A stretch of DNA of 64,000 nt from Candidatus Puniceispirillum marinum IMCC1322 (GTDB lineage Bacteria > Pseudomonadota > Alphaproteobacteria > Puniceispirillales > Puniceispirillaceae). Location: the NCBI RefSeq assembly GCF_000024465.1, contig NC_014010.1, forward strand, positions 186,001 to 250,000. The letters are read 5' to 3'. Below, in pieces: positions 1 to 19,689 of this stretch. Within the stretch, counting starts at the first letter, position 1. Every line of letters begins with the position of its first letter. Below the pieces are notes generated by a model that did not search any database, had not been told where the DNA came from, and saw only the letters and a program-made list of their open reading frames with translations. Both the position numbers and the translations under genes were made by a program.

Positions 1-1221
1 CAATTTAATACAGATCTGGCGATGAAACTTGGAGATCACATTGAAACAGCTGTAACATCGGCAATGAGCCCTGTTGTAGATAAGTTGAGTTCAATGGGAG
101 AGAATATGGGGCAAAGTAACATTAAGGCAATGCAGGAAATTGGCGACGCTATTGCCAAAAATGTTCAAGGAGCTGCAGGCGAAAGTTTAGGCCACTTGTC
201 TGATAGGCTTGATAACCTAACAACTGTACTTGGCGATATGTCATCAAACCTTTCCAAGAGCACAAGTGAGTTTGAGAATGATATAGCCAATGCACTGACG
301 AGTATGAAATCAGGTTTAGAGGCTATGGCGTCAGATCTGCAAAGTAATGCCGCGCAAACATCCGATATACTTTCTGAAAAGCTTGAGGGTCTTGCTGATA
401 GCCTATCAAATGCAGCTGAGAACATTAAGGTTAGCCTTGAAGCAGGGGCAGGAGAGGTGTCTGGTGAGCTTGAAAGAGCAATCGAAAGGCTAACTGAGGC
501 CACTGATAGAAGTGCAGACAAGATGGGCTCTGCTGTTGACGGTATTAACGATGCAGTGAAGGGCATTGCCAGCTCTCTCGAAGATGCTTCGGGGCAAGCT
601 GGTGAATTAGCAAAGGCCCGAATGGAGGAAGCTGGAGCCTCCGCAGCAAATACGTTTTCAGAAGCGGGGCAAAAAATGTCTGACGCGCTCGAGGTGGGTA
701 TGGAAGAGCTCAGTACTGCAATGGCAGGCTTTGAGCAGAGTCTCGGTCAAGCCTCAGAAAATATGCTTAAAATGAATGATGAACTGGGCAACACATCTAA
801 AGTGGTTTCAAAGACTAGTTCAGATTTAGATAGTAGCGTAAAGGCTCTTAAAGAGGCATCAGGTAGCGTAAGCGGCGCAATTAGTCCAGCGTTAAATGCT
901 GTTGAAAGTATTCAGTCTGCGGTGAGGCAGATGGATGAAAAGGTGAGTTCAGCAGCTAGTCGTGTCAGCGAAGCTGTTGAGAGGCTTGAGACGGAAATGC
1001 GCCTCAGCGGGGAGTCTTGGGAAGAGCATTCGAAAAAGTTTGACGGGGTTAATGAGAACCTTGGGGCAGTGTTCAGTAAAGTTAACTCTCAGATAGAAGA
1101 GAGCCAGAGCAGGATGAGAGATTTCGTGATTGGTGTTGACGGCGCATTCAGAAACGCCTTGGCTGGTCTCCAAGAGGCTGTAGAAGAACTAGCTGATGAA
1201 CGAAAAGCTGGAAGAGATTAG
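1..1221 (+). CDS. zorA: ZorA, motor-tail subunit of type I Zorya (5'-truncated by window edge)
   Basis: The frame is open from base 1 to the TAG at 1219-1221, so the visible ATG at 22 is probably internal. What remains (about 400 residues) is a low-complexity, Ala/Ser/Glu-rich helical coiled coil with no membrane segment. That matches the long cytoplasmic tail that follows the MotA/ExbB-like membrane domain in ZorA. In the family, ZorA and ZorB form a proton-driven inner-membrane motor that senses phage entry and signals through this tail. Identity rests mainly on the following genes: zorB starts 6 bases after the stop, then zorC and zorD follow with overlaps. The MotA-like domain must lie to the left of the window. 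On its own the tail could be any coiled-coil protein. Confidence 0.85.
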   Translation, partial: QFNTDLAMKLGDHIETAVTSAMSPVVDKLSSMGENMGQSNIKAMQEIGDAIAKNVQGAAGESLGHLSDRLDNLTTVLGDMSSNLSKSTSEFENDIANALTSMKSGLEAMASDLQSNAAQTSDILSEKLEGLADSLSNAAENIKVSLEAGAGEVSGELERAIERLTEATDRSADKMGSAVDGINDAVKGIASSLEDASGQAGELAKARMEEAGASAANTFSEAGQKMSDALEVGMEELSTAMAGFEQSLGQASENMLKMNDELGNTSKVVSKTSSDLDSSVKALKEASGSVSGAISPALNAVESIQSAVRQMDEKVSSAASRVSEAVERLETEMRLSGESWEEHSKKFDGVNENLGAVFSKVNSQIEESQSRMRDFVIGVDGAFRNALAGLQEAVEELADERKAGRD

Positions 1222-1227
1222 TGTTAG

Positions 1228-2040
1228 ATGGGTGGGGCAAGAAGAAATAGAAAATCACGCAACGAGGCAGACGAGTCTTATTTTGTGTCTATGACTGATA
1301 TTATGATTGGTATGCTGTTCGTTTTCATTCTGATCATTATGTACTTTTCTTACCAATTGAAGATTCAATCAGAGGCTCAAGATGATTATGCGCAGTCGGC
1401 AACAGATCATCGCACGCAGATTCTTGACGAGTTGAAAGATTATTTAGAGGGTAACGGTCAGATTAAAATTGAGATAGATGCAGAGCAGGGTATCCTAAGA
1501 GTTCCAGAGGGGGTGTTGTTTGACTCTGGTGTTGCCGATATTCTGGAAGGAAGCAATGCAGACTTCTTCTCGGCCAAGCTGGCAGCAGCTTTTGCGGCTG
1601 TCATTAGGTGCTCCGTTCTAAATGAAGGGCTAAAAGTTTTTGATGGTTCAGAAAAATGCAGGTCTAAAAATGTTAACCGAGCATTTATTGAGTCAATATT
1701 TATTGAAGGGCATACTGACAACAGCCCCATAAGGGGCGGTCTTAGAGGCAACGTCAAGATCAATTCAAATCTCCGATTATCAGCGCGGAGAGCTACAAAT
1801 ACCTACGAAAATATGATTGCGAAAAAGCCAGTCCTTGAAGCGTTTAAGTCGCCTAAAAACGAACCCGTGTTTGCGGTGTCAGCATATGGTAAGACACGCC
1901 CAATTGACACTAATTCCACATCCTCAGGTAAAGCAAACAACCGCAGGATTGATATTAGGTTACTGATGTATATTCCAGAAAACAGTGCGGCGTTATTTGA
2001 TTACAGGAAAAGGTTGGAGACTTTCTATGAGCTCAACTGA
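1228..2040 (+). CDS. zorB: ZorB, MotB/OmpA-like stator subunit of type I Zorya
   Basis: This 270-residue protein has a short basic N-terminus, one membrane helix (about residues 21-42) and a C-terminal OmpA-like peptidoglycan-binding domain (about 150-245). Visible OmpA motifs are GHTDNSP at 161-167, LSARRA at 184-189 and NRRIDIR at 238-244. Asp24, at the start of the helix in SMTDIMIG, is at the position of the proton-carrying Asp of MotB and ZorB. The protein should anchor the ZorAB motor to the cell wall and provide its ion path. It is co-directional with zorA (6-base gap), and its 3' end overlaps zorC by 14 bases. A flagellar MotB is unlikely because no flagellar gene is nearby and the partners are zorC and zorD. 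Confidence 0.93.
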   Translation: MGGARRNRKSRNEADESYFVSMTDIMIGMLFVFILIIMYFSYQLKIQSEAQDDYAQSATDHRTQILDELKDYLEGNGQIKIEIDAEQGILRVPEGVLFDSGVADILEGSNADFFSAKLAAAFAAVIRCSVLNEGLKVFDGSEKCRSKNVNRAFIESIFIEGHTDNSPIRGGLRGNVKINSNLRLSARRATNTYENMIAKKPVLEAFKSPKNEPVFAVSAYGKTRPIDTNSTSSGKANNRRIDIRLLMYIPENSAALFDYRKRLETFYELN

Positions 2041-3415
2041 TATCTCTGAAATTGACGTAAGCTTTAAGCTACATTTGCCGACGTTTTCTGCAAGATCAGA
2101 ATCTACAGCGAAGGCAGAGAAAATTATCAAAAAATATGGCTCTATTGTGCCAAATGTACCTGAAAACATAGAACATATTATTCAGAAGGCAAAAGAATAT
2201 TTCAGTTCAAGTAACGCGGAAAAATTGACTGAAAAAGAGTTGAGAGCAGTTGCATTTGAAAGTTTGTCTAGAGACGAGGGTGATAGGTTTTTCTTTAACC
2301 TTTTAAAAGCTGTTGATGAAGCCAAGTCACGCCGGGTTTTTTCTGCTTTGTTTTCCTCTTATATCATGAATTTTAATAAACATGATGAGCGTATTGCTCA
2401 AGCTGCCAAACTCCTAAAAAAGCACCAAAAGACTTTGTCAAAAAGCTGGGTGAGACGGCTTGAAAACTTTGATTTGCTGGCATTCAAAACTATTGAAACA
2501 TCGCTTGCCAAAAAAATTATGGAAGAGGGCAATGACCACTCAGTGTTTGATCGTGCTGGCCTTACTGGAGCATTTTCAGCGAGTCGACTGGTTCAGAGCA
2601 GCCTTATCGAATTGGCTAACCAAGTTGCCAAGCGGATAAAAGGTGGCAATACAGACGCCTTATATGATTTTTTAAAGATAGTATGTGTTGGGGACAAAAT
2701 TAAACAGCATGCTGGTGCGGCAGCTATGATTGCATCACTTAAGCCTTTTATCGACTCTTCGCCGCCAGTGCATTTAAAAGGTCTACTGCAGAAAGTGTTT
2801 ATCGGTTCTTTCTCTGACCCAAGGATCACTCTAAACCAGTGGCCTGAAATTCCGGCCCATTTGGGCGGCACTAATTTGCGAACCTCATGTATTGGACTTA
2901 TTAAGAAATGGTTAAATTTTGAGGCGATTGAATTATTCTTCAAGGTTATTGCTGAACACGCTCCTGACGAGCAGTTCGAGCCTAGAAGAAACCTTTGGAA
3001 GTCATACTTTGATCAAGAGTTTGTGGTGGATGCTCATATTATTTTAGGACAGAGCGCCGCCTTGACGGCTAAGCGATTAAAAAGAACGGATGATGCTGCT
3101 CACGGATTAATATGGGGTAACCTGTCAGGGGCAAACCCTGATCAATCTGTTTTATTGATGCAAATTGGAGATTTAACTGTTGCCGAGTGGAGTCATAATG
3201 GAAAATTTAGAGCTTGGGATCCTGACTCACCTAAAAAGCCGAGGTTTTACCGCAACTCTTACAGCGCTTCAGAACTTAGGCTGGGTTCAAACAAAATTAG
3301 AAACAAGAATGGTTCTTATGGAGACGGTATAGTTCATCTGGGTGATTGGGTGCCAAGAGCTAAGGCCTACGTTAACCAAGCAACTGGAATTCGCTTGTCG
3401 AGGAAAATACGATGA
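2027..3415 (+). CDS. zorC: ZorC, type I Zorya cytosolic protein (EH-signature family)
   Basis: A 462-residue soluble protein placed between zorB and zorD, as in type I Zorya operons. I chose ATG 2027 (MSSTDISE) because GGAG at 2016-2019 sits 7 bases upstream; an in-frame start at 1985 would run deep into zorB. The C-terminal third carries the R-N-L-W-K-S-Y stretch followed by the D-Q-E-F-V-V-D-A-H segment, which fits the EH-signature proteins to which ZorC belongs. In studied systems ZorC binds DNA and is needed for defence, probably passing the motor signal to ZorD. Its stop overlaps the zorD start by 4 bases (ATGA). I assign it largely by operon position and overall character; no enzymatic motif is visible. 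Confidence 0.85.
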   Translation: MSSTDISEIDVSFKLHLPTFSARSESTAKAEKIIKKYGSIVPNVPENIEHIIQKAKEYFSSSNAEKLTEKELRAVAFESLSRDEGDRFFFNLLKAVDEAKSRRVFSALFSSYIMNFNKHDERIAQAAKLLKKHQKTLSKSWVRRLENFDLLAFKTIETSLAKKIMEEGNDHSVFDRAGLTGAFSASRLVQSSLIELANQVAKRIKGGNTDALYDFLKIVCVGDKIKQHAGAAAMIASLKPFIDSSPPVHLKGLLQKVFIGSFSDPRITLNQWPEIPAHLGGTNLRTSCIGLIKKWLNFEAIELFFKVIAEHAPDEQFEPRRNLWKSYFDQEFVVDAHIILGQSAALTAKRLKRTDDAAHGLIWGNLSGANPDQSVLLMQIGDLTVAEWSHNGKFRAWDPDSPKKPRFYRNSYSASELRLGSNKIRNKNGSYGDGIVHLGDWVPRAKAYVNQATGIRLSRKIR

Positions 3416-6400
3416 AACAATTTCACTCTTCAATCCAAAGTGACTGTGTCGAGCTGAGGCTCAAGACTGTTTCAAAAAAAATTTTACGAAAAGATAGCGA
3501 GTCAATCGAAAACGTTTCAGAGTGGATCGGTTTGTCTCGCTTTGATCAGGTAGAGGCACTTGGCACACTCTTCGCTGCAATGGAAGAAAACTCGGGTAGT
3601 TTTGAAAGGTTGGATAGTGACGAAGGGTATCGCGTTTCATTTGATTTTGTCTCAACTCTTAACGAAGCGCAGGCATTGGCTTTAGGTCTTCCAAAATCTT
3701 TTCCCTATTCAATAAGAATAAAAAGTATCAGTAATATAGGGTCAAAGAACTATTCGCTCGACTGGATTGCCTATGGTAATGGGCGCCAGTTAAACGTGAG
3801 TAGAGTTGGCTGTTTCTTGTATCAGGGTAATGAGGTTTTCAAGTTAAACGCTGATATATGGAAGATCATTGAATGTATAGATGAATTTAACTCAAGTGGT
3901 TTAGATGACTTTGACTCAAAGACTTCCTTTGTGTCTGAACTGAGGTCACTTTTGCCCGAGACCCCAGACGGGCGCGTGTACTTCGATGGTGAACTTGCTG
4001 AGGTCTCCCTTCAACACGCTGTTGCGTTTTCACTTCAAATTACAGGTGATAAAAATTCGATTAACTTTAATCCAGTCCTTTTTAATAAAATAACAAAAGA
4101 TAGAGCATCAGAGACTGACACGCTGATAGAAGAAGATGAGCAAGTACTTACTCCCAATGACGCTAGGACCTTTTCTGCTGCTTTTAAAAAGTCAGGGAAG
4201 GTCAGCGCATCATATCTTTTAGGTAAGGGGAAGTATGTCTTTATCGATAAGTCGCTAAGGCCTGCACTTGGCGCAGTTAAGACTGCGATCGCGTCCCCAA
4301 AAGATGCTCGAGTTGAGTTCGCCAAGGCTCCACAAAAGTTTATCAAAAATATTCTAGAGAGAGATTTTGAAGGCCTTCCTGATGTCGATATAGAAATAGC
4401 CTCAGCGAATATTGATAGGATATTTATTGAAACGAGGCAGTTTTCTGACAGGGTGACAGGAATTGGGCTTTGGGAGGCTCCTGACCTGCCTTGGCTGGAG
4501 ATTGAGCCGCAAGATTGGCGAGCTGATAGCTATTCTTTTTATGTGCAGGGAAAAACGATTTCTATACCAACGCCGGATCTGGAAAAGGAGGTTGAGAAAT
4601 TAAGATTAGCCGTTCAAACGGGTACCACTCAGGTTGAGATTGGTGGCCAAATCGTCAGACCAGATCAGTCTTTTTTGAATTTTTTGATGGGGCTATTACC
4701 CGTTAAGCCAGAAGATCCACCGGAGCCAGAAGATCCACCGGGGCCAGAAGAGCCGCCGGAACCCGTGAAAGAAAAGGGAACATTTGTTCTTCTAACCAAA
4801 GAAAATTTTGAGTCGGTGCGGTACAACAGCCGCCTTGCGTCTCGTTCAGGCGCCCTGAGTGCAGAGCCACCTTCTTGCAAAAGCCCAAAAATAGTTTTGA
4901 AGGCCCATCAAACATCAGGGCTTAACTGGCTAGTTGAGTCATATAACCGCGGGTATCCCGGTGTGCTTATGGCCGATGATATGGGTCTGGGTAAAACTCT
5001 TCAGGCGCTTATGTTTTTGGCAATAATGGTTGAAACAGGGAAAACTGAGACAGGAGAGCCAATTTTAATTGTCGCTCCCGTGGGATTGCTAAAGAATTGG
5101 GAAGAGGAGCACTCCAAACACCTCTCCGGTGAGGGGCTTGGTTCCTTTGCAAGGCTCTACGGCAACAGCCTAAAGGGCTTTAAAGTTGCAAAGGGTAGAG
5201 ATATAGAAAGCGGAAACGCTAGTCTTAATACTGATAAAATAAGGGGTCATGATTGGTTGCTTACCACTTATGAGACCCTTCGTGATTATCAGGCTTCATT
5301 CGGGCAAATTAGATTTTCTTGCGTAGTTTTTGATGAGATACAAAAGGCAAAAAACCCGCGTGGTTTGATTTATAACGGCGCTAAAGGTCTTAATCGGGAC
5401 TTTGTTTTGGGCTTGACTGGCACCCCAGTGGAGAACTCGTTATCAGATTTGTGGACAATTATGGATGTTATTAGCCCCGGGAGATTAGGTGATCTAAAAA
5501 CATTCATGAGTAGCTATCCTGAGCCAAGGTCTGAGAATGCTCAAGAGGCGCTTGAAAACCTAAAACAATTGTCAGTCCAACTTTTGGAGCCCTCAGCGAA
5601 TGGCCCGGCTCCAGTGATCCGAAGAATGAAATCTGACCTGTCAGATGCGGGGCTCCCAGAAAAAATTCTTGTGCCATCTCTAGAAACAACAGTTTTGATG
5701 CCAAGGATCCAAGATGATGAATATATTGCCCGTTCTAATAAGTTAAACAGCGGGCAGACTTCAATGATTGAGGCTCTTCATGCTTTCAAATCTATATCAC
5801 TGCATCCCATATCCCCCGTTCAGTTTGAGCAGTTTTCGATTGATGAATACATCAAGGCATCAGCTCGACTTTCTAAAACATTTGAAATTCTTGAACGCAT
5901 CCATAAACAAAATGAAAAAGTGTTAATTTTTTTGGAGAGTAGAAAATTTCAAGTAGTTCTGGCGTCCCTAGTTAGAGAAAAATTCAAAATGGACCACAGT
6001 CCATTAATCATTAATGGTCTGATTAGTGGTGAGGCGCGACAGGAAAGGGTGAATACTTTTCAGTCCAACCCAATTGGATTTGACGTGATGATTATATCTC
6101 CAAAGGCTGGTGGTGTCGGTTTGACTTTAACTGCGGCTAATAATGTCATTCATCTAGAACGCTGGTGGAACCCCGCCGTAGAGGATCAATGCACCGACAG
6201 GGCTTACCGGATAGGCCAGACAAAAACAGTTAATGTTTACACTCCAATTGCAAAGAATGGATCCTTTGGGGAAAAATCATTTGATTGTATCTTAGACAGG
6301 TTGCTCAACGAGAAGAGGTCTATTGCAAAGGGCCTTTTTGTTCCAACTTCTGTTACTGGCGATGAGTTTGGAGGGGCGTTTAAAGAGGGGGTGCGCGGGC

Positions 6401-6804
6401 GCGAACTAAGCCTTGAAGAAATTGATTGTTTTGAACGTGGTGAAGAGTTTGAGAATTATATAATTAGCCAGCTAAACTCAGTGGGACTGAAGGCGTCTAA
6501 AACTCAATCGAGTTATGATTATGGAGCCGACGTGATAGTAAAAAATGAGAAGACTGGTCGCTCTGCCATAGTTCAGTGCAAACATAGGTCCAGTGGTTCA
6601 AAATCTGTTTCACAGGATGCGGTCGATGAGGTGCTAAAAGCTGTCTCATATTATGATTTAGGCGCTCCCAAACTATTTGTTGTTACAAATGCAGGGTCAG
6701 CTACTTCAGGGTGCAGGAGCGTAGCGAATGAAAATGGTGTAACACTTGTATTGCGAGATGACTTATTGACAGTTCAAGGTGTTTTAGGTTCTAAACTTAA
6801 TTAG
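3412..6804 (+). CDS. zorD: ZorD, SNF2-family helicase with C-terminal Mrr-like nuclease domain
   Basis: 1130 residues. Residues 1-430 are unassigned. A proline/acidic repeat linker follows (about 433-450, from three 18-bp repeats at 4708-4761). The SNF2 ATPase core has Walker A GLGKT at 525-529, DEIQ at 641-644, a GLTGTPVENSLSDLW motif III, and motif VI around DRAYRIGQ at 929-936. The C-terminus (about 1010-1125) is a restriction-endonuclease-like Mrr domain with Asp1040 in GADV and Gln1055-x-Lys1057 in VQCKH, so the nuclease site looks intact. In type I Zorya, ZorD is the effector that translocates on and degrades incoming DNA. It overlaps zorC by 4 bases, and its stop codon touches the 38-base repeat at 6804. 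Confidence 0.93.
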   Translation: MKQFHSSIQSDCVELRLKTVSKKILRKDSESIENVSEWIGLSRFDQVEALGTLFAAMEENSGSFERLDSDEGYRVSFDFVSTLNEAQALALGLPKSFPYSIRIKSISNIGSKNYSLDWIAYGNGRQLNVSRVGCFLYQGNEVFKLNADIWKIIECIDEFNSSGLDDFDSKTSFVSELRSLLPETPDGRVYFDGELAEVSLQHAVAFSLQITGDKNSINFNPVLFNKITKDRASETDTLIEEDEQVLTPNDARTFSAAFKKSGKVSASYLLGKGKYVFIDKSLRPALGAVKTAIASPKDARVEFAKAPQKFIKNILERDFEGLPDVDIEIASANIDRIFIETRQFSDRVTGIGLWEAPDLPWLEIEPQDWRADSYSFYVQGKTISIPTPDLEKEVEKLRLAVQTGTTQVEIGGQIVRPDQSFLNFLMGLLPVKPEDPPEPEDPPGPEEPPEPVKEKGTFVLLTKENFESVRYNSRLASRSGALSAEPPSCKSPKIVLKAHQTSGLNWLVESYNRGYPGVLMADDMGLGKTLQALMFLAIMVETGKTETGEPILIVAPVGLLKNWEEEHSKHLSGEGLGSFARLYGNSLKGFKVAKGRDIESGNASLNTDKIRGHDWLLTTYETLRDYQASFGQIRFSCVVFDEIQKAKNPRGLIYNGAKGLNRDFVLGLTGTPVENSLSDLWTIMDVISPGRLGDLKTFMSSYPEPRSENAQEALENLKQLSVQLLEPSANGPAPVIRRMKSDLSDAGLPEKILVPSLETTVLMPRIQDDEYIARSNKLNSGQTSMIEALHAFKSISLHPISPVQFEQFSIDEYIKASARLSKTFEILERIHKQNEKVLIFLESRKFQVVLASLVREKFKMDHSPLIINGLISGEARQERVNTFQSNPIGFDVMIISPKAGGVGLTLTAANNVIHLERWWNPAVEDQCTDRAYRIGQTKTVNVYTPIAKNGSFGEKSFDCILDRLLNEKRSIAKGLFVPTSVTGDEFGGAFKEGVRGRELSLEEIDCFERGEEFENYIISQLNSVGLKASKTQSSYDYGADVIVKNEKTGRSAIVQCKHRSSGSKSVSQDAVDEVLKAVSYYDLGAPKLFVVTNAGSATSGCRSVANENGVTLVLRDDLLTVQGVLGSKLN
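4708..4761 (+). repeat. 18-bp tandem repeat inside zorD
   Basis: Three imperfect 18-bp units (4708-4725, 4726-4743, 4744-4761) encode repeated P-E-D/E-P-P-E/G. They form the flexible linker between the N-terminal region and the SNF2 core of ZorD. The unit length is a multiple of three, so copy-number changes would keep the frame. Confidence 0.85.
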
Positions 6805-6891: not shown

Positions 6892-7266
6892 TTATGGCAA
6901 AACCTTGTCACACGCCTCACAATTGCACTTCAGCTTATTTCTATCTGACATAAACTCGCTAATAGTCGCTGGTTTTTTGCATTTCAAGCAGAGCATTTTA
7001 TCTTTGTATGGGCGTCCCCATTTTTTGTAGACCGGGTCAGCATCGATTTTCAGTAACCAATGTAGAGGTAATGCAACATATCCGGGGGAATAATTGACCC
7101 AAAATACCCTTTTGTTACTGAGCCGTTTATTGCTAGTGCAATTTTTACATTCCTCACCCTCCAGCGGCTCTAAATAGGGAACAGGGTGTTTATGAGGCCA
7201 ACCCTTCCATTTAGAGAGCTTCTGCTCAGCACATTCGTAACAGTAGAAAATTTCTGGGTCTTCCAT
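6892..7266 (-). CDS. Small cysteine-rich (zinc-ribbon-like) protein, intact copy of gene B
   Basis: 124 residues with four close cysteine pairs: CYEC near the N-terminus, C-K-N-C near residue 42, C-L-K-C near 93, and C-N-C-E-A-C near the C-terminus. This suggests two zinc-binding ribbons. No catalytic motif or membrane segment is visible, and I do not recognise the family. The ATG (7264-7266) overlaps the stop of the upstream gene (7266-7769) by one base in a TAATG junction, so the two are probably translationally coupled. A degraded copy of this gene sits behind the paralogous partner at 10494-10708. A DNA- or RNA-binding role is possible but not shown. Confidence 0.7.
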   Translation of the reverse strand: MEDPEIFYCYECAEQKLSKWKGWPHKHPVPYLEPLEGEECKNCTSNKRLSNKRVFWVNYSPGYVALPLHWLLKIDADPVYKKWGRPYKDKMLCLKCKKPATISEFMSDRNKLKCNCEACDKVLP

Positions 7267-7322
7267 TACGTCTCCTCGAAGGTGACGTAATCAGCTTGTT
7301 CGATGGCTTTTTGGGCGTCGGC
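7206..7322. repeat. 117-bp direct repeat, copy 1
   Basis: From TCCATTTAGAGAGC to TTGGGCGTCGGC, this segment matches 10648-10764 base for base as far as I can read. It spans the start of gene B, the TAATG junction and the last codons of gene A (7266-7769). Outside it the two copies diverge quickly. That means either a recent duplication or gene conversion confined to the junction. Confidence 0.9.
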
Positions 7323-7769
7323 ATCGTTGGCAAAGAACCCAATGAAGTTGATGACGTGGATGCCGAGTTGTCCCCAGATTTGCTGAACAGTGACTGCTAT
7401 GATTTCATCAGTGCCATTAGAAAATGTGCTAATCACCATAAAGGTATGATCGTGGTCAAAAATATTCTCGTTCAGAGACCGTTCTTCTTTTTGGGTAAGG
7501 ACGGCACCTGCTTTTATCTCTTCAGAGCGCTCTTCAGTTTCGCAAATTCCATAATCTGCAGGGTTTTCTAATCGCTCTTTGCGCTCACTCTCATAGCGCT
7601 CTCGTTCCATTACAACAGAGTCGTATCCCCAAACTACATCAGAGTCGCATCCTCCCTCATACTCATATGGGTCAAAATCAAGGGCATTGAATATGGCTTC
7701 CTGAGCCTCGTGGCCATTTCCAACGACAGCTTTGATTTGTACCATTTGTTCTGGTGATATTTTATACAT
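7266..7769 (-). CDS. Hypothetical acidic cytosolic protein, gene A copy 1
   Basis: 167 residues, acidic, no signal peptide or membrane segment, no recognised domain. The ATG at 7769 follows a good GAGGG ribosome site. It is paralogous to the 161-residue protein at 10708-11193. They share the N-terminal pattern I-x-x-E-Q-M-x-Q-I-K, the central YGICETEERSEEIKAGA, V-Q-Q-I-W-G-Q-x-G-I, and the C-terminus A-D-Y-V-T-F-E-E-T. Copy 1 alone carries the insert EYEGGCDSDVV. It lies in a probable three-gene operon with 7806-8687 (36 bases upstream) and 6892-7266 (one-base overlap). The function is unknown; duplication within a defence island would fit an immunity, antitoxin or defence accessory. Confidence 0.75.
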   Translation of the reverse strand: MYKISPEQMVQIKAVVGNGHEAQEAIFNALDFDPYEYEGGCDSDVVWGYDSVVMERERYESERKERLENPADYGICETEERSEEIKAGAVLTQKEERSLNENIFDHDHTFMVISTFSNGTDEIIAVTVQQIWGQLGIHVINFIGFFANDADAQKAIEQADYVTFEET

Positions 7770-9195: not shown

Positions 9196-10467
9196 TCACA
9201 TTGCATTTTTTAACTCGATTTCATCAGGCTTATAAACAACCTCGTAAAAGTCATACAGATACTGATCACGAGAAGACCAAGTGCGAAGCATTAGTTTCAC
9301 TTCTTTATCCACATTCAATGATTTGTAAATTTCACTTATGGTCTCGGGCTTTTTTCCATTTATTGCCATTATATAAGCGTATGCAAATAATCCCGCTCTA
9401 GAGCCATATGATCCATTCTCAAGTGAATGTATCTGGAATAAGCTATCGTTATATCTAAACTCGTTGAAGCGGGCTTCCGCGATTAGCGCGCCATCAACTA
9501 ATACATACGGCTCTGAGAGATACTCTTCCTCGAATGGGAATTCGATTTCGATATCACTCTCGGTATTATCATGCTCAATGGTGAATATTGCCTTGCCTTC
9601 GCCACCTCTTAGCATTGTATGGACTTCTGTTGGAGATTTGACCTCGATACCATTGACCTTGGTAACTAAATCACCAATCTGGATGCCTTTGGGCAATTCA
9701 CCATAGCGGTTACCAGCGACGATCATATATTCTTCAGTCTCTTCATTTTCAGCAAACGAGATGGGCAAGCGCGGTGGCAACGGCGAACCACCTGATCTTA
9801 TGATCTCAAGTATTCTACAGATTGGTTTTGCAGGAACTGCGAAGTTGAGACCTTCTGTATCCTCAAGCGCCATAGAATTAACACCCAACACTTTACCTGT
9901 TTCAAGGTCAATCAAGGGGCCGCCAGAATTACCACTATTTATGGCTGCATCAGTTTGGATCCAGTCTACACGGTCGTAAACACGGACCTGAGATATAATA
10001 CCCCGGCTGGCTGAATAACTAAGCCCTTCTGGATGGCCAAATGCGGCAACCTCACGGCCATTTAATATCATGTTTGAGCATTCAAGCTTAGCCTCAATCG
10101 CATTATTCGGTATCTTTCGTTTTGATACCATAACTAAAGCTAGATCAAGTTCGTTGTCAGCATATAAAACTTGGGCGGTGCTGTATCGTTCATCTTTGAA
10201 AGATACTTCCAGCTCGGCTGTCCCATATCCAGAAACATGTGCATTAGTTATCACCCAGCCGCGTTCTTTATCGACCAAAAACCCAGCACCATTTGAGGTG
10301 CCAGCTCCACCATCATAGTAAATCGAGTTGTTGATAGATGATTTAATACGAACAGCATAACTATTGGCGTCTTCAATTGGATCCGCGTTAGAAAAACTTA
10401 AACCGCATAAGATAAATATGACTGCACAGGTAAAAGTATTTCTGAAGAATAACGAAAAATTGTTCAT
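9196..10467 (-). CDS. Secreted trypsin-like (HtrA/DegP-type, S1C) protease with two PDZ-like regions
   Basis: 423 residues. A Sec signal peptide spans about residues 1-28 (hydrophobic core 13-23), so the protein acts in the periplasm. The chymotrypsin-fold domain has the complete triad: His77 in TNAHVSG, Asp108 in NELDLAL and Ser181 in GNSGGPL. A first PDZ-like segment lies near 260-310 (IQIGDLVTKVNGIEVKSPTE) and a second near 345-400 (SRAGLFAYAYIMAINGKKPE). Core DegP proteins have the same layout, but this one is short, divergent and embedded in an accessory island. It lies between the tail-anchored protein gene and the degraded gene B copy, with no close operon partner. The substrate is unknown; it may process the small secreted proteins encoded nearby. 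Confidence 0.85.
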   Translation of the reverse strand: MNNFSLFFRNTFTCAVIFILCGLSFSNADPIEDANSYAVRIKSSINNSIYYDGGAGTSNGAGFLVDKERGWVITNAHVSGYGTAELEVSFKDERYSTAQVLYADNELDLALVMVSKRKIPNNAIEAKLECSNMILNGREVAAFGHPEGLSYSASRGIISQVRVYDRVDWIQTDAAINSGNSGGPLIDLETGKVLGVNSMALEDTEGLNFAVPAKPICRILEIIRSGGSPLPPRLPISFAENEETEEYMIVAGNRYGELPKGIQIGDLVTKVNGIEVKSPTEVHTMLRGGEGKAIFTIEHDNTESDIEIEFPFEEEYLSEPYVLVDGALIAEARFNEFRYNDSLFQIHSLENGSYGSRAGLFAYAYIMAINGKKPETISEIYKSLNVDKEVKLMLRTWSSRDQYLYDFYEVVYKPDEIELKNAM

Positions 10468-10493: not shown

Positions 10494-10708
10494 TTATGAG
10501 AACGGTGATTTCTGTTTGGATGTCTTCTCTGGACTCAAGCATCCTCTTGCATTGTTCGACAGCCTCTTGCCTGAGCCGCAGGCCTCGCAGTTGTCATCTC
10601 CAAGAGGGCGCAAAAATGTAATTGGAGGTGACCGATGAGGCCACACCTCCATTTAGAGAGCTTCTGCTCAGCACATTCGTAACAGTAGAAAATTTCTGGG
10701 TCTTCCAT
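10494..10708 (-). pseudogene. Degraded second copy of the cysteine-rich gene B
   Basis: From the ATG at 10706-10708 the first 20 residues equal those of the intact copy at 6892-7266 (MEDPEIFYCYEC...). A one-base loss just after K-L-S-K-W then shifts the frame. In the shifted frame the similarity resumes as W-P-H-R-S-P-P, D-N-C-E-A-C and K-R-L-S-N-N, then ends. The reading stops at 10535 in the original frame and 10494 in the shifted frame, so the C-terminal two zinc pairs are absent. It keeps the TAATG junction with gene A copy 2 upstream. Confidence 0.8.
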
Positions 10709-10764
10709 TACGTCTCCTCGAAGGTGACGTAATCAGCTTGTTCGATGGCTTTTTGGGCGTCGGC
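10648..10764. repeat. 117-bp direct repeat, copy 2
   Basis: Same orientation and sequence as 7206-7322, about 3.4 kb away. It spans the 3' end of gene A copy 2 and the 5' end of the degraded gene B copy. Homologous recombination between the copies would delete or amplify the protease gene and its flanks. Confidence 0.9.
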
Positions 10765-11193
10765 GTCATCGGTGAAGAAGCCAAGAAAGCTGATGATTTG
10801 AATACCAGCTTGTCCCCATATCTGTTGGACAGTGAGGGCTAAAATTATTTCGTTATCATCGGTAAGCTCTTCGATAACCATAAATGCATCATCACCATCA
10901 AAAATACTCTCGTCTATGGCTCTCTCTTCGCCGTCAGTGAGAGCGGCACCTGCTTTTATCTCTTCAGAGCGCTCTTCAGTTTCGCAAATTCCATAATCTG
11001 CCGGATATTCTAATCTCTCTTTTCGTTCGCCATCATATTTTTCCCGATCCATAACAACTGAGTGATATGGCTTAAAAACATCTGAGCCATAGGGATTAAA
11101 GTCAAGTTTGTTAAAAATAATTTCCTGCTCAGCAACACTGTTGTTGAGTGTGGATTTTATTTGAGTCATTTGTTCAGTTGTTATCTCGAACAT
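10708..11193 (-). CDS. Hypothetical acidic cytosolic protein, gene A copy 2
   Basis: 161 residues, paralogue of the protein at 7266-7769. The last 20 or so residues and the central YGICETEERSEEIKAGA are the same, while the N-terminal half has diverged more. No signal peptide, membrane helix or known domain. It is the last intact gene of a probable minus-strand operon (12229 to 10708), starting 7 bases after the stop of the secreted-protein gene 11201-11593. The gene B partner behind it is broken, so if A and B act together this copy may now work alone or with the other locus. Confidence 0.75.
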   Translation of the reverse strand: MFEITTEQMTQIKSTLNNSVAEQEIIFNKLDFNPYGSDVFKPYHSVVMDREKYDGERKERLEYPADYGICETEERSEEIKAGAALTDGEERAIDESIFDGDDAFMVIEELTDDNEIILALTVQQIWGQAGIQIISFLGFFTDDADAQKAIEQADYVTFEET

Positions 11194-14271: not shown

Positions 14272-14589
14272 ATGCAAAAACTTCAATTGAACCGCATGAA
14301 ATCTGGCCAATTCGCACCCGGTCAATCGGGCAACCCCGGCGGTCGTCCTAAAGACGAACACCGTGTTGCTGAGTTAGCTCGCTCATACACAGTTGAGGCT
14401 ATAGACACGCTTGTTGAGTTGATGCGTGACGGCAAGGATGAACGTGTGCGCGGTACAGCTGCTCAAGCACTTCTAGATCGAGGCTGGGGCAAGGCTAAGG
14501 TTGAGGTGGTTACAGATACTGAGGGCAGCTATTTGGACGTATTGAGGGTGGTTAATGAGCAACTGCTACTGAGGAGGGCTGACGATTAA
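14272..14589 (+). CDS. DUF5681-domain protein
   Basis: 105 residues. The N-terminal motif S-G-Q-F-A-P-G-Q-S-G-N-P-G-G-R-P-K is the hallmark of DUF5681, a short domain found in proteins of phages, integrated elements and their hosts. The rest is helical. In phages similar proteins can precede terminase genes, but none is here. It is the last gene before the tRNA attachment remnant, so it belongs to the island. An alternative start is ATG 14296 (M-K-S-G-Q). The function is not established. Confidence 0.75.
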   Translation: MQKLQLNRMKSGQFAPGQSGNPGGRPKDEHRVAELARSYTVEAIDTLVELMRDGKDERVRGTAAQALLDRGWGKAKVEVVTDTEGSYLDVLRVVNEQLLLRRADD

Positions 14590-14663: not shown

Positions 14664-14684
14664 TGTAGACATAGTGTAGACATA
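14664..14684. repeat. Two TGTAGACATA direct repeats near the island end
   Basis: TGTAGACATA at 14664-14673 and again at 14675-14684, an 11-base period, about 80 bases left of the tRNA fragment. Short direct repeats at this distance from an att core resemble the arm-type sites of tyrosine recombinases. Confidence 0.55.
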
Positions 14685-14761
14685 ACTACCTATCGTTTTT
14701 ATTACACTTACATAAGTTATTGTTTTATAATTACTAATTGCGTTACTTTATTGCTTGCCCA

Positions 14762-14811
14762 CTATACTGGGGGTGTAGGGGTCGTGAGTTCGAATCTCGC
14801 CGCTCCGACCA
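14762..14811 (+). other. Island attachment site: 3' half of tRNA-Pro(GGG)
   Basis: From 14762 the sequence folds as a tRNA 3' half. Anticodon stem CTATA / TGTAG (14762-14766, 14774-14778) encloses the loop CTGGGGG with anticodon GGG. Then come a 5-base variable region, the T-arm GTGAG-TTCGAAT-CTCGC (14784-14800), acceptor strand CGCTCCG, discriminator A and encoded CCA (14809-14811). The D-arm and 5' acceptor strand are missing; upstream bases are unrelated. This is the duplicated 3' piece left when an element integrates into a tRNA gene. The intact plus-strand tRNA-Pro should be at the far left end of the island. Confidence 0.9.
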
Positions 14812-15271
14812 TTTCAAATCTCATTAAATATCAATAAAACAAAGACATACAGGTGTGTTTTTGTTTTGTCTTCAGATGCTGAAAAGGTCATGAGTCACAA
14901 TTTCACCGTGACAGGGAGTTTTTCAGTGATGGTGAGATGCGTTTTATTTCTTTTAACACCATAGACCAGGATATTTACAATTCACTTGATTGATTTCATC
15001 CTCAGTCCGTGAGGTGATCCTAAAACACATTGATTTTTGTAGTTTGCATCAGTCTTGCACCTAGTGGTTAGTTTGTCATATATTTGTCACGCACATCCCC
15101 CGAAGCATATGAGTTCAGCTCAGTGTTGTTCCCTTAATAGGGCATAGCTGTATAAGGATAGATAAGTCCTATTATGCGAACGCAAATAAAGGGCTATTAA
15201 TTAATTACGTCATTTCCGGATTTAAGATTGCAAAAGCAACCATCTGGTCATGGTCGCCGCTAAGGAGGTAA
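14812..15271. other. 460-bp non-coding region right of the island
   Basis: First chromosomal sequence after the attachment site. It holds a candidate Pho box (15073-15090), an imperfect hairpin near 15143-15179 and the AAGGAGG ribosome site of the permease gene. I see no coding sequence here. Confidence 0.6.
15073..15090 (+). promoter_or_regulatory. Candidate Pho box upstream of the TauE/SafE gene
   Basis: TTGTCAT, four bases, TTGTCAC: two 7-base direct repeats with 11-base period, matching the PhoB pattern CTGTCAT-N4-CTGTCAT with one change per half plus a terminal C. It lies 182 bases ahead of the permease gene. A single site found by eye. Confidence 0.35.
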
Positions 15272-16282
15272 GTGGTGCCCCGCATATTAACAAAAATACC
15301 TGAGCTTTCATTGCTTTTGTTGCTGACAATCATTGCTTACGCTTATGTTGAATATGCAGCAGTGGTTGGAAACACGCCAATCGGGTCATCATTAACCAGT
15401 ATTGATATGATTGTGCTGTCTTTCGTCATCAGTATGGCGATAGCGATTATTGCCGTGATTGCGGGTGTTGGAGGGGGCGTTATATTCACCCCCATCATGC
15501 TTGCTTTCACTTCAATCGATACGTTGGTAATCCGATCGACGGGGCTTGTTGTGGCGATGTTCAGCGGTTTGGTATCCACTGGGCCATTCATGCGCAAGGG
15601 ACTCGCTGACGTTAAAATTGTTTTCTTTGGCGCACTACCAATTATCATTGGCGGTTTAGGTGGGGCCTTTGCTGCGATTATTCTGGCGCGATATCTTGGT
15701 GAGACAGGCGATGCGATTGTGCGCCTTTTACTGGGGGTTACTCTGGTCATGATTGCGTTGCTTTTTATTTTCAGCGGTTCCAATAACGAATATCCACAAA
15801 CCGATAAGTTTGACTCCTTTGGCAATGATCTGAAACTCCGCAATACCTACTGGGAAGAGTCCCTAAACACCTATGTTCGCTATCGTGCCGTCAATGTAAA
15901 ACTTGGCGGCATTTTGTTTTTTGTTGTTGGCTTTACCGGAGGTTTCTTTGGTCTTGGTGGCGGCTGGGCTGTTGTGCCTGTTTTGAATCTTGTTATGGCG
16001 GTACCGTTGAAAGTGTCTGCGGCATCAAGCGGTGTGTTGCTGGCCATGGGTAATGCGGCAGCAATCTGGCCCTATATTAATGCGGGTGCATTGATTGGTC
16101 TGGTGGCGGCACCTTGGATGCTTGGACAGGTCATCGGGGGCATTATTGGTGCGCATATTCTGGTATCGATCAAAGCCGGTTTTGTGCGCAACCTTCTCAT
16201 TATTCTCTTGTTGCTAACCAGTGTGAAACTAATGGTTCGTGGACTAGAGACGTTATTAAGTATAGATATACCTATATTCTGA
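15272..16282 (+). CDS. TauE/SafE-family membrane permease
   Basis: 336 residues, very hydrophobic, with about eight membrane segments. It shows the duplicated glycine motifs of the family: G-V-G-G-G-V-I-F-T-P in the first half and G-F-F-G-L-G-G-G-W-A-V-V-P in the second. TauE/SafE proteins export sulphite, sulphoacetate or other small anions; the substrate cannot be told here. The start is GTG 15272 or GTG 15275; AAGGAGG at 15262-15268 fits 15275 better. A small membrane protein gene follows after 15 bases and is likely co-transcribed. It is the first core gene after the island. Confidence 0.85.
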   Translation: MVPRILTKIPELSLLLLLTIIAYAYVEYAAVVGNTPIGSSLTSIDMIVLSFVISMAIAIIAVIAGVGGGVIFTPIMLAFTSIDTLVIRSTGLVVAMFSGLVSTGPFMRKGLADVKIVFFGALPIIIGGLGGAFAAIILARYLGETGDAIVRLLLGVTLVMIALLFIFSGSNNEYPQTDKFDSFGNDLKLRNTYWEESLNTYVRYRAVNVKLGGILFFVVGFTGGFFGLGGGWAVVPVLNLVMAVPLKVSAASSGVLLAMGNAAAIWPYINAGALIGLVAAPWMLGQVIGGIIGAHILVSIKAGFVRNLLIILLLLTSVKLMVRGLETLLSIDIPIF

Positions 16283-16762: not shown

Positions 16763-17728
16763 CTAAGCTGGTTTTCGCTTTCGCGATTTTGCATTTACAT
16801 GCTCTCGCCACGCCGTCAAAATACCGGCAGATGCGATCATACACATGCCCGCAACTGTAAAAGCGCTTGGCCAACTCCCAAAAAGAACTTTGCCCCAGAT
16901 AATGGCAAAAAGCAGGTAAGAAAAATCAAGCGGAGCCAGTCGGCTGCTTTCGGCGGTCTGATAGGCTCTGTTCAGAAAGATATTACCAGATAGGTTCAAG
17001 ACTGAAGAGATAATTGCGAAAACCAGCACGGTGAGCGTTAGCACCGGCCAGCCAATAGCCACAAAGGGCATGGCGTCTTGAAGGGCTTGTTCTGGTGCAA
17101 ATACGGTCAGCAATAGACTGCCCATGGCGCCCGAAACAATGAACATCACCGCCACCGCAAAAGTCAGCGTAACCGGGCTTTCGCCTCGGCAATAACGCCG
17201 CAATATCAGAATATTTATGGCATATAGCAAACCAGCGCAGATCGGCAAAAGCTGGACTAAAGTGAAGTCACTAGTCCATGGTCGTAAAATCGTCATGGCG
17301 CCACAGACCCCAAGAAGCAAAGCAATAATACGCCATATGCCAACCCGTTCACCAAGAACTGGTGCCGCCAGTAAAGTGACGAATAATGGATAGGTATAAA
17401 GTCCTGCTGCCATCTGTGCGACAGACAGAAAAGGTGCGCCGGCAAAAAAGCAGAACATGCACATTGTCATGACTGCTGCGCGTAAGAAAACCATACGCGG
17501 GTTCAGCGGAATGAGCAGGGTAAAGCCGCTACCAATAGCGCATAGACAAAGCAGCAAAAACCCGTTGCCCATTGATCGTAACGTCTGAAATTGCCAGAAT
17601 GACGTTTCTGACGCCATATATTTGACCAGTGAATCCTGCAAGGCCAGGATCAGAACACCACTTAAAACGAGGATCATGGCGGTGACAGGACGATCCTCAG
17701 TTGGTCGTTCAAGAAGCTTTATTTTCAT
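16763..17728 (-). CDS. DMT-superfamily transporter (two EamA domains)
   Basis: 321 residues with about ten hydrophobic segments in two EamA-like halves; the first ends near the R-P-W-T-S-D loop and the second near L-F-G-S-W-P-S. The terminal L-x-P-L/F pattern in the last helix pair and the short basic tail are typical of drug/metabolite transporters of the inner membrane. The family exports amino acids, purines or other metabolites; the substrate cannot be predicted. It lies downstream of the acyl-CoA synthetase gene on the same strand with a 49-base gap. Confidence 0.85.
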   Translation of the reverse strand: MKIKLLERPTEDRPVTAMILVLSGVLILALQDSLVKYMASETSFWQFQTLRSMGNGFLLLCLCAIGSGFTLLIPLNPRMVFLRAAVMTMCMFCFFAGAPFLSVAQMAAGLYTYPLFVTLLAAPVLGERVGIWRIIALLLGVCGAMTILRPWTSDFTLVQLLPICAGLLYAINILILRRYCRGESPVTLTFAVAVMFIVSGAMGSLLLTVFAPEQALQDAMPFVAIGWPVLTLTVLVFAIISSVLNLSGNIFLNRAYQTAESSRLAPLDFSYLLFAIIWGKVLFGSWPSAFTVAGMCMIASAGILTAWREHVNAKSRKRKPA

Positions 17729-17777
17729 TGCCTAAACATTCCTGCGACAGGTGCAGTGTTGATATCGTGCGCGATAG

Positions 17778-19553
17778 CTATCTTTTGCCATATAGCGCAT
17801 CGATCTGATCACCATAAATATCACGCACCATATGCCGGCGAACTTTCAAAGTAGCAGTCATTAAGCCATTTTCTGTGGTGAATTTTTCATCAGCAATGAC
17901 AAACCGCCTTACGCGCTCAATTTGTGATAGACGGCTATTGGCACGTTCAACAGCATCGGCAATAAGTGCTTTTAAATGCGTAGGGTCTTTTGCCATGTCA
18001 TAGGTGTCTTGCGAAGGGACAATGACCGCAGAAAGCCATGGGCGACGATCCCCATCGACCATGGTTTGTTCGATTTCAGGTTCTATCGTCAGCAAGGCCT
18101 CGACGCGCCCAGGGGCGATGTTTTCACCACCAGAATTGACAATAATATCTTTCTTGCGTCCGGTGATCGTGATCATGCCGTCTTTGTCAATTGAGCCAAG
18201 GTCGCCTGTATAAAGCCAGCCATCACGAATGGCGGCGGCTGTGCTAGCTTCATCCCGCCAATAACCCTTCATCAGCAAATCACCAGCCACCAGAATTTCG
18301 CCATCACTTGCAAGTTTCACTGTGACCCCGCTGACAGCAGGGCCAACAGTTTCTATTTTGATATTCTGGGGGCGGTTGGCAGAAATAAGCGGCGAGGCTT
18401 CTGTTTGACCATATCCCTGAAGCAATTTAACCCCCAGTGCCATGAAAAAAGATCCGATTTCAGGATTCAATGCCGCCCCGCCGGACACAAAGTATTTTAG
18501 GTTTCCACCAAGCCGTGCATGCACTTTCTGCCTTACCAGCCTGTCCAATATCCGGTTAAGCAAAAATTCATGCGGCATCAATAGCCGCCCTTCAAGCTCT
18601 TTACGGCCTAGTTTAACAGCCATATCGAACAGCTTTGCCGAAATACCGCCTTTGATCCTTACCCCTCGTGTTATGCGCTCATAAAGTACTTCATAAAGCC
18701 TAGGCACCGCCGTCATCAAGGTTGGCGACACTTCAACAAGATTCGCCGCGATTTGATCGGTACTTTCGCAATACCAGACTTCAGAATTGCTCTGGAATGG
18801 CAAATGCATGCCTGCTGTATGCTCATAGGAATGTGAAAGTGGAAGAAGTGACAGGAAACGCTGGTTTTCAGATACATTACCCTCGGCAAGCAGTTCAATT
18901 GCCGCGTCAATATTAGCTTGTATTGATCGATGTGTAAGCATCACCCCCTTGGGGCGACCACCGGTTCCTGAGGTATATATGAAACAGCATACGTCATCAC
19001 TATCAATGGCACTAATGCGGCTGTCGATATCAGCCAGCGGTACCGACTCTTTCATAATGTCTGGCCAGAACAGAACATCGGCGTCACCCATATCTGGCAG
19101 GGTGGTGGTCTTATCCATAACGATCAAGGTATGAAAATTAGACGTACGCGCCGCCGCCATGCCCACACGCAAGGCAAGGTTGCCAGATGAGGTGATCGCA
19201 ATATGTGCCGATGAATGATCTATAATGTAATGATGATCTTGTTCGGTGTTCGTTGTATAGGCAGGCACAACAATCCCACCGATTGCCATAATGGCAATAT
19301 CGGCAATAGCCCATTCGGGACGGTTTTCTGCCGATACCACAACACGGTCACCTGATTTGACACCCTGTTTGACTAGCGTGCTGGCAAGCTTGCAAACCTG
19401 TTCCGAAATTTCGGCCCAGCTTTGTCCGTGCCATGTTCCACCAGCTTTATGAAACAAAAGTGGTTTGTCTGGCGATTGTTGTGCGGCTTTAAAAAAGGCG
19501 GCTGGCAAATTTGCCGAGGTTACATAATGATCCGAGGTCGGCACGGCTGGCAT
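17778..19553 (-). CDS. Long-chain acyl-CoA synthetase (AMP-forming)
   Basis: 591 residues from ATG 19553 (M-P-A-V-P-T-S-D); a TTG at 19571 would add six. Visible ANL-superfamily motifs are Y-T-S-G-T-G-G-R-P-K-G (phosphate loop), G-Y-G-Q-T-E-A-S-P, Y-T-G-D-L-G, G-R-K-K-D-I-I-V-N-S-G-G-E-N, and the terminal T-A-T-L-K-V-R-R lysine region. It activates fatty acids to acyl-CoA for lipid synthesis or breakdown, and the long-chain type is favoured by length and the FadD15-like T-G-G variant of the loop. No beta-oxidation genes adjoin it. Confidence 0.9.
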   Translation of the reverse strand: MPAVPTSDHYVTSANLPAAFFKAAQQSPDKPLLFHKAGGTWHGQSWAEISEQVCKLASTLVKQGVKSGDRVVVSAENRPEWAIADIAIMAIGGIVVPAYTTNTEQDHHYIIDHSSAHIAITSSGNLALRVGMAAARTSNFHTLIVMDKTTTLPDMGDADVLFWPDIMKESVPLADIDSRISAIDSDDVCCFIYTSGTGGRPKGVMLTHRSIQANIDAAIELLAEGNVSENQRFLSLLPLSHSYEHTAGMHLPFQSNSEVWYCESTDQIAANLVEVSPTLMTAVPRLYEVLYERITRGVRIKGGISAKLFDMAVKLGRKELEGRLLMPHEFLLNRILDRLVRQKVHARLGGNLKYFVSGGAALNPEIGSFFMALGVKLLQGYGQTEASPLISANRPQNIKIETVGPAVSGVTVKLASDGEILVAGDLLMKGYWRDEASTAAAIRDGWLYTGDLGSIDKDGMITITGRKKDIIVNSGGENIAPGRVEALLTIEPEIEQTMVDGDRRPWLSAVIVPSQDTYDMAKDPTHLKALIADAVERANSRLSQIERVRRFVIADEKFTTENGLMTATLKVRRHMVRDIYGDQIDALYGKR

Positions 19554-19689
19554 AGGCTGATTTTTCCTCAAAACTGAGCGCTGTAATTTACAATATCTAA
19601 ATTCCTATTCATTGCAAATTAAATGAAACGAGATGATTAATCCTATCATCTGTAATCATATAAGCGACCAAGACATGCAATCATGTCAT

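What the first reader, a model, noticed from the sequence alone, without database searches (positions are those of the whole stretch)
14762..14811. Right attachment site: a 3' half of tRNA-Pro(GGG) bounds the island
The tRNA fragment runs from anticodon stem to encoded CCA with all stems paired, while the 5' half is missing. Core genes begin right after it, accessory genes stop right before it. This pins the right edge of the element and predicts an intact tRNA-Pro(GGG) with an integrase gene at the left end.
Basis: partly seen in the sequence, partly recalled or inferred. Interest (0 to 1): 0.7.

Follow-up and report, generated by a model that had tools for sequence, protein, structure and literature searches.

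The report
Defence island inserted in proline-tRNA gene
A 21.6 kb mobile island carrying an anti-phage (Zorya) system sits in a proline-tRNA gene of a marine SAR116-like bacterium: the cut-off old tRNA end marks its right edge and a rebuilt tRNA plus integrase its left, a well-known kind of insertion at a site that some related bacteria and marine viruses also appear to use.

Summary
Window 14760-14811 is a 52-nt 3' half of tRNA-Pro(GGG). The direct repeat is 113 bp (7 mismatches) and runs 61 bp past the tRNA. A 19-bp double repeat occurs exactly twice in the 2.75 Mb genome, once inside each end (probable integrase arm sites). Joining the flanks in silico restores a good tRNA-Pro(GGG). The island (43.1% G+C against 47-48% outside) carries integrase, primase-helicase, alternative oxidase and type I Zorya; the oxidase family and the ZorC family were found in 0 of 60 relatives. 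The site is reused: 9 of 61 genomes hold an internal remnant, and six virus contigs carry the same tRNA half near an integrase ORF. New member of a known kind (tRNA-gene genomic island). Twist: remnant and rebuilt gene differ by one exactly base-paired T-stem change, and two relatives show other paired T-stem changes, so islands may swap tRNA 3' halves. Correction: the first gene to the right (TauE) is not syntenic in relatives; EamA and acyl-CoA synthetase are, within the family.

The parts
14760..14811 (+). Displaced 3' half of tRNA-Pro(GGG), anticodon stem to encoded CCA (attR); the given finding
   Evidence: 50 of 52 nt identical to the 3' half of the intact gene at G000:C1:179034-179110
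14760..14872 (+). Full direct repeat attR: tRNA 3' half plus 61 bp downstream; the other copy is G000:C1:179059-179171
   Evidence: 113 bp, 7 mismatches
14834..14869 (+). 16-pair hairpin in the downstream part of the repeat, fully paired here, weaker in the left copy
   Evidence: -14.5 kcal/mol, z -4.18, against -7.7, z -2.05 for the left copy
14664..14682 (+). Double repeat TGTAGACATAGTGTAGACA inside the right end; probable integrase arm-type sites (role inferred)
   Evidence: exactly 2 places in the genome with up to 2 mismatches, the other at 179215-179233 inside the left end
1..1221 (+). zorA (type I Zorya, MotA-like), C-terminal part; the ORF starts left of the window at about G000:C1:185182
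   Evidence: PADLOC ZorA1 E 5e-83 on the whole ORF
1228..2040 (+). zorB (MotB/OmpA-like)
   Evidence: PADLOC ZorB1 E 1.1e-85; Pfam OmpA
1985..3415 (+). zorC (EH_Signature); the true start may lie a little inside
   Evidence: PADLOC ZorC1 E 2.7e-58; Pfam EH_Signature E 3.6e-100
3412..6804 (+). zorD (SNF2 helicase with C-terminal Mrr-like nuclease)
   Evidence: PADLOC ZorD1 E 0, 1372 bits; SNF2-rel_dom, Helicase_C, Mrr_cat
9196..10467 (-). Trypsin-like serine protease with PDZ domain (cargo)
   Evidence: Pfam Trypsin_2 E 7.4e-26, PDZ_6 E 4e-10
14272..14589 (+). Last ORF of the island seen, DUF5681; weak resemblance to phage terminase small subunit
   Evidence: Pfam DUF5681 E 1.1e-9; PHROG 2538 E 2.5e-6
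15272..16282 (+). TauE/SafE-type transporter, first gene outside the island; not syntenic in the relatives searched
   Evidence: Pfam TauE E 2.2e-33; its close homologues in relatives lie on other contigs than the tRNA
16763..19571 (-). EamA transporter and AMP-binding acyl-CoA synthetase: right neighbourhood of the tRNA site, conserved within part of the family
   Evidence: Pfam; linked to the tRNA or its remnant in relatives; linked to each other in 7 of 19 loci

Best explanation
A 21.6 kb integrative genomic island lies between attL (G000:C1:179059-179171) and attR (window 14760-14872). A tyrosine integrase coded at its left end recombined a circular attP, carrying its own tRNA-Pro(GGG) 3' half plus about 60 bp, with the host tRNA gene. 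The exchange fell upstream of the first T-stem difference, in the 27-nt identical block around the anticodon loop. The host 5' half joined to the island's 3' half keeps an intact tRNA at the left; the host's old 3' half was displaced to the right and is the fragment. Shown: both repeats, gene order, unique repeats inside both ends, a valid rejoined tRNA, and marker families absent from the relatives searched. Inferred: that this integrase did it, the exact crossover, the arm-site role, and whether it still moves. The main benefit to the host is probably phage defence by the Zorya genes (inferred).
For: Intact tRNA-Pro(GGG) at 179034-179110 + and integrase ORF 179259-180437 + (Arm-DNA-bind_3 above its cut-off; PHROG integrase E 6.9e-41). 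113-bp direct repeat in the same orientation. 19-mer double repeat only at 179215 and 200664 in the genome. The in-silico rejoined site gives a full tRNA-Pro(GGG) while the fragment alone gives none. Island 43.1% G+C against 47.4% left and 48.5% right. EH_Signature (ZorC) and AOX each found in 1 of 61 genomes, the own one, in the island. Site reuse: internal remnants in 9 of 61 genomes including the own one; 6 of 6 virus contigs matching the tRNA half carry a Phage_integrase ORF near it.
Against: The integrase scores below Pfam's cut-off for PF00589 (24.8 against 27.1 bits), and the PF00589 scan whose 15 own-genome matches are all printed does not include it (the list is capped). No natural empty site was available: no same-genus genome among the relatives, and none of the 19 loci found with the right-flank EamA protein holds the tRNA half. 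Homology 61 bp beyond the tRNA end is more than a minimal att core needs and was not seen in relatives. In 23 of the 26 genomes scanned with PF00589 (the own one among them, its integrase being missed) no match lies beside the tRNA or its remnant, so most relatives give no direct support for an integrase there. No excisionase was recognised beyond a sub-threshold HTH_17 match (E 0.081).
Confidence: 0.95

Rival explanations
1. The fragment is the old end of an earlier, related element (tandem integration): both 113-bp repeats would be int-side ends of two elements, the right one since emptied.
For: The repeat continues 61 bp past the tRNA, and in attL that stretch is island DNA. In one relative (G017) a short integrase-like stretch follows the remnant.
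Against: The arm repeats that should follow at the right of the remnant are absent (TGTAGACA, either strand, occurs in the window only at 14664 and 14675), and no ORF of 80 aa or more lies wholly in 14812-15271. The hairpin is more perfect in the right copy, as expected of a native flank.
Confidence: 0.12
2. Chance or a degenerate tRNA pseudogene unrelated to mobile DNA (partial duplication).
For: tRNA pseudogenes exist; no natural empty site was seen.
Against: Same orientation, integrase beside the intact gene, repeats unique to both ends, low G+C and marker absence in relatives all coincide with the two copies.
Confidence: 0.02
3. The element is a phage satellite or a decayed prophage rather than a plain genomic island.
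For: Integrase and primase-helicase near one end and a terminase-small-subunit-like last ORF (PHROG 2538, E 2.5e-6).
Against: No capsid, portal, large terminase or tail family among the 20 cargo ORFs scanned with Pfam or the 10 scanned with PHROGs; smaller ORFs were not scanned. Zorya, oxidase and protease make up much of the cargo.
Confidence: 0.2

Closest known systems
tRNA-gene genomic islands as collected in Islander (PMC4383910; passages seen)
   Same: Regenerated tRNA at one end, displaced fragment in the right orientation at the other, integrase inside; anticodon-centred exchange is one of its two main classes (2083 islands, against 1836 with T-stem-region sites)
   Different: Nothing essential; the repeat is longer than the tRNA part, and the rebuilt gene differs from the displaced half by one base-paired change
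Type I Zorya defence system
   Same: zorA, zorB, zorC and zorD in order, each best matched by type I models
   Different: No difference was looked for; it resides in a tRNA-Pro island, and its EH_Signature marker was not found in the 60 relatives searched
Phages carrying the tRNA-Pro(GGG) 3' half, e.g. Sinorhizobium phage phiLM21
   Same: 95.6% identical over 45 nt at positions 6-50 of the phage record
   Different: A phage of another host group. Its use of this tRNA is only inferred; a paper on Sinorhizobium integration sites reports phiLM21-like prophages mostly in tRNA-Lys(CUU) and does not contain the term tRNA-Pro (PMC11476347, passages)

Membership tests
tRNA-gene genomic island (Islander definition) | Intact (regenerated) tRNA gene at one end | tested here: met
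   tRNA-Pro(GGG) G000:C1:179034-179110
tRNA-gene genomic island (Islander definition) | Displaced tRNA fragment in the correct orientation at the other end | tested here: met
   Window 14760-14811, same strand
tRNA-gene genomic island (Islander definition) | Integrase gene between them | tested here: met
   PHROG integrase E 6.9e-41, Arm-DNA-bind_3 above cut-off, Phage_integrase just below its cut-off
tRNA-gene genomic island (Islander definition) | Absence from relatives / empty site (my added criterion) | tested here: inconclusive
   ZorC and AOX families in 0 of 60 relatives, many of them incomplete drafts, and the in-silico rejoined site is a valid tRNA, but no same-genus empty site was available
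Type I Zorya | ZorA, ZorB, ZorC and ZorD encoded together | tested here: met
   All four by PADLOC type I models
Type I Zorya | Protects against phage | not testable with these tools
   Needs an assay
Integrative and conjugative element | Relaxase and transfer apparatus | tested here: not met
   No such family among the 20 cargo ORFs scanned with Pfam; smaller ORFs not scanned
Prophage | Structural and large-terminase genes | tested here: not met
   None among the 20 cargo ORFs by Pfam or 10 of them by PHROGs
Phage satellite (P4/PICI-like) | Integrase, primase-helicase and packaging-hijack genes; mobilised by a helper phage | tested here: inconclusive
   First two present; only a weak terminase-small-subunit-like match for the third; mobilisation not testable here

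The most novel reading that the evidence does not exclude
Integrative elements at tRNA-Pro(GGG) in SAR116-type bacteria act as a shuttle for tRNA 3' halves: each insertion replaces the host's T-arm and acceptor 3' strand with the element's version, so the working tRNA is a mosaic whose halves have different histories, and base-paired T-stem variants spread between genera with the islands. Here the displaced half (A-U) and the rebuilt half (G-C) differ at exactly one T-stem pair; in G015 and G006 the rebuilt gene has another T-stem (GCAGG/CCTGC) and a G-U in the acceptor stem, while the displaced half keeps the common GTGGG/CCCGC.
Probability: 0.35. Interest if true: 0.45.

Novelty: new member of a known kind. 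Interest (0 to 1): 0.3.

Why it matters
It fixes the exact ends of a defence island in a single-contig SAR116-type genome, so excision, the empty site and Zorya-dependent phage resistance can be tested directly. It also shows that tRNA-Pro(GGG) is reused by islands in this order and probably by viruses, which may help to pair unknown marine viruses with hosts. The paired T-stem differences give a small natural test of how mobile elements reshape an ordinary tRNA gene.

Tried and rejected
The island's integrase found no relative in viral contigs and only distant ones (all below 60% identity; 27.0-28.5% in the ten rows listed) in 102 phage records. A genome-contig scan with the right-flank EamA protein returned 19 loci, best identity 60%; none holds the tRNA half or a TauE relative at the thresholds used, and 7 of 19 hold the acyl-CoA synthetase. 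A local iterative HMM from this integrase reached only its own copies and one virus ORF, so integrases of relatives were sought with PF00589; the full list misses the own integrase, so absence there is weak evidence. One search also lists integrase matches beside weaker tRNA matches in other genomes (for example G039, G045, G053, G059); those tRNA genes were not identified or followed.

Decay alone as the cause of the differences: 5 of the 7 are C/G to T/A in the remnant, which fits decay; but both changes inside the tRNA part are partners of one T-stem pair. The chance is 0.0095 for two G/C-to-A/T hits and 0.0023 for two random substitutions, computed after seeing the data, so only a hint. 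A promoter and terminator scan round the intact tRNA found no promoter-like site and one terminator-like site, on the other strand upstream of the tRNA. Weaker partial tRNA matches that belong to other tRNA genes, or were cut by contig ends (G005, G010, G023, G026 and one of two in G054), are not in the count of nine remnants; the one in G034 may be a decayed whole gene. A search for papers on chimeric tRNA genes found none with three of the six terms; one search gave a listing only. No claim is made that the mosaic idea is unprinted; I recall, from no call, that Williams wrote on such traffic at the tmRNA gene.

Full report
What was checked. The window is G000:C1:186001-250000 of a single-contig genome of 2,753,527 bases. 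I recall, from no call, that this is the length of Candidatus Puniceispirillum marinum IMCC1322; the genome paper was not held. Of the 19 loci found with the right-flank EamA protein, three are titled Candidatus Puniceispirillum sp. (one of them 'uncultured') and three SAR116 cluster. The fragment reads CACTATACTGGGGGTGTAGGGG... to the encoded CCA at 14760-14811. ARAGORN finds no complete tRNA in the window.

The left end. The 34-nt 3'-end pattern with up to 3 mismatches occurs twice in the genome, both on the + strand: here and at 179077-179110. ARAGORN reads the latter as an intact tRNA-Pro(GGG), 179034-179110. An integrase ORF follows in the same direction, 179259-180437, with a likely ATG at 179280. 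It has Arm-DNA-bind_3 (31.1 bits, cut-off 27), Phage_int_M (26.3, cut-off 27) and Phage_integrase (24.8, cut-off 27.1), a PHROG integrase match at E 6.9e-41, and an HDNRRTF box. Against: the PF00589 scan prints all 15 of its matches in this genome and this gene is not among them, which fits its sub-threshold score.

The repeats. Left and right copies align without gaps over 113 bp with 7 mismatches: 52 nt of tRNA (2 mismatches) and 61 bp beyond it (5 mismatches). The first 27 nt are identical; the first difference is in the T-stem, so the exchange must have fallen before it (inference). The double repeat TGTAGACATAGTGTAGACA lies about 105 bp beyond the tRNA on the left (179215-179233) and 77 bp before the repeat on the right (window 14664-14682). 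With up to 2 mismatches it occurs nowhere else in the genome. Such sites flanking an att core resemble arm-type integrase sites (general knowledge of tyrosine recombinases); binding was not tested.

The rejoined site. Joining the chromosomal 5' half to the fragment gives a full tRNA-Pro(GGG) by ARAGORN; the fragment alone gives none. The two differences inside the tRNA, at positions 53 and 63 of the 77-nt gene, are partners of one T-stem pair: G-C in the rebuilt gene, A-U in the rejoined one. By chance this has probability 0.0095 for two G/C-to-A/T hits (computed afterwards). The downstream flank folds into a 16-pair hairpin in the right copy (-14.5 kcal/mol, z -4.18) and a weaker one in the left copy (-7.7, z -2.05). 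Both facts suggest that the right copy is the host's former, once working 3' end rather than a merely decayed duplicate; they do not prove it, and 5 of 7 differences also fit C/G-to-T/A decay.

The cargo. Between the tRNA end and the right repeat lie 21,649 bases (179111-200759) at 43.1% G+C, against 47.4% in the left flank 170001-179033 and 48.5% to the right in the window. In order: integrase; an unknown ORF; a small ORF with a sub-threshold HTH_17 match (E 0.081), perhaps an excisionase; a primase-helicase (AAA_25 E 8.8e-38; PHROG primase families); an alternative oxidase (E 5.3e-79); zorA, zorB, zorC and zorD of type I Zorya; several ORFs without a family; a trypsin-PDZ protease; and a DUF5681 ORF ending at 14589. 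Of the 20 cargo ORFs given to Pfam, none is a relaxase, transfer or structural phage protein. The EH_Signature (ZorC) and alternative-oxidase families each occur in 1 of 61 genomes, the own one, inside the island; many of the relatives are incomplete drafts.

The neighbourhood in relatives. In 58 of 61 genomes (own included) the tRNA query matches something. A relative of the upstream MerR gene lies beside the intact tRNA in 24 of 29 loci (L008-L036). Downstream, an acyl-CoA synthetase relative lies on the same contig as the intact tRNA within 28 kb in nine relatives (G001, G007, G013, G015, G018, G020, G022, G027, G028) and near a remnant or contig-edge half in three more (G003, G006, G026) (compared by me); in G006, G015 and G027 it is on the other strand relative to the tRNA and only 51-52% identical. 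In the other 48 relatives no such link was seen, because of contig breaks or because the genes are far apart, as in the single-contig genomes G037 and G043 of another family. The EamA relative is linked to the tRNA site in G003, G013, G020 and G026. The space between is variable: about 5.5 kb in G007 with no mobile gene obvious to me among the ORFs listed (these were not scanned), and 27.7 kb in G013. Close homologues of TauE, the first gene right of our fragment, lie on other contigs than the tRNA, so it is not part of this conserved order.

Reuse of the site. Remnants whose upstream sequence is not an intact tRNA half and which are not cut at that side by a contig end were read in 9 of 61 genomes: G000, G003, G006, G011, G013, G015, G017, G034, G054; that of G034 may be a decayed whole gene. 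In five (G000, G013, G015, G017, G034) the intact gene is on the same contig and strand. Among the 26 genomes scanned with PF00589, a match lies beside the intact tRNA in G013 and G009 and beside the remnant in G003; none was seen there in the other 23, the own genome included since its integrase is missed. Six contigs of the viral collection carry the 45-nt tRNA half; no complete tRNA was found in the parts held, and each has an ORF matching Phage_integrase within about 0.6 kb. One (L105) also encodes a single-subunit RNA polymerase and a T7-type helicase-primase. Their hosts were not determined. Sinorhizobium phage phiLM21 has the same 45 nt at 95.6% identity near the start of its record, but a paper on Sinorhizobium sites places phiLM21-like prophages mostly in tRNA-Lys(CUU) and does not contain the term tRNA-Pro (PMC11476347, passages).

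Rebuilt genes against displaced halves. Where both could be read (7 genomes: G000, G003, G006, G013, G015, G017, G034; in G003 and G006 on separate contigs, in G003 the intact gene cut by a contig end), the T-stem differs at paired positions in 3 (G000, G006, G015), on one side only in 1 (G034), and not at all in 3 (G003, G013, G017) (read by eye). The GCAGG/CCTGC variant with a G-U in the acceptor stem also occurs in intact genes of G020, G021, G032 and G046, in three genera and two families. This is consistent with 3' halves travelling with elements; lineage-specific evolution of the tRNA is not excluded, and G046 appears by eye to have a native-type flank.

Comparison with what is known. 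[quoted passage not shown] PMC9897764 (passages) describes such fragments as pervasive and often misannotated. PMC8547437 on SAR116 phylogenomics has the word island once, for metagenomic islands in two other genomospecies, and no mention of integrase (passages). In the listings of the four searches run for this I saw no paper on this island; only the listed rows were looked at. The finding is ordinary in kind, precise in detail, and confirmed.

Noticed in passing
L039 1348-1424 and 3072-3156; L042 3092-3168; L041 1154-1231: In G015 and G006 the intact tRNA-Pro(GGG) carries a T-stem GCAGG/CCTGC and an acceptor G-U pair, while the displaced half keeps the common GTGGG/CCCGC sequence: possible chimeric tRNA genes.
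   Followed up: partly
L105 2201-2245 and 2266-10940: A virus contig with a T7-type RNA polymerase and helicase-primase carries the tRNA-Pro(GGG) 3' half next to an integrase ORF: a probable temperate T7-like phage; host not determined.
   Followed up: partly
window 14834-14869 and G000:C1:179133-179168: The repeat includes a 16-pair hairpin just after the tRNA, fully paired in the displaced copy and weakened in the rebuilt copy; perhaps a tRNA terminator or processing signal carried by the element together with the tRNA end.
   Followed up: partly
G000:C1:184018-184620 (left of the window): Alternative oxidase as island cargo; the family was found in none of the other 60 genomes searched.
   Followed up: partly
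window 7266-7769 and 10708-11193: Two similar ORFs of unknown family in the island (both ending ...ADAQKAIEQADYVTFEET), on the minus strand on either side of the protease gene.
   Followed up: no
L038 9687-9988: In G017 a short integrase-like stretch follows the displaced tRNA half, hinting at a second, tandem element.
   Followed up: no
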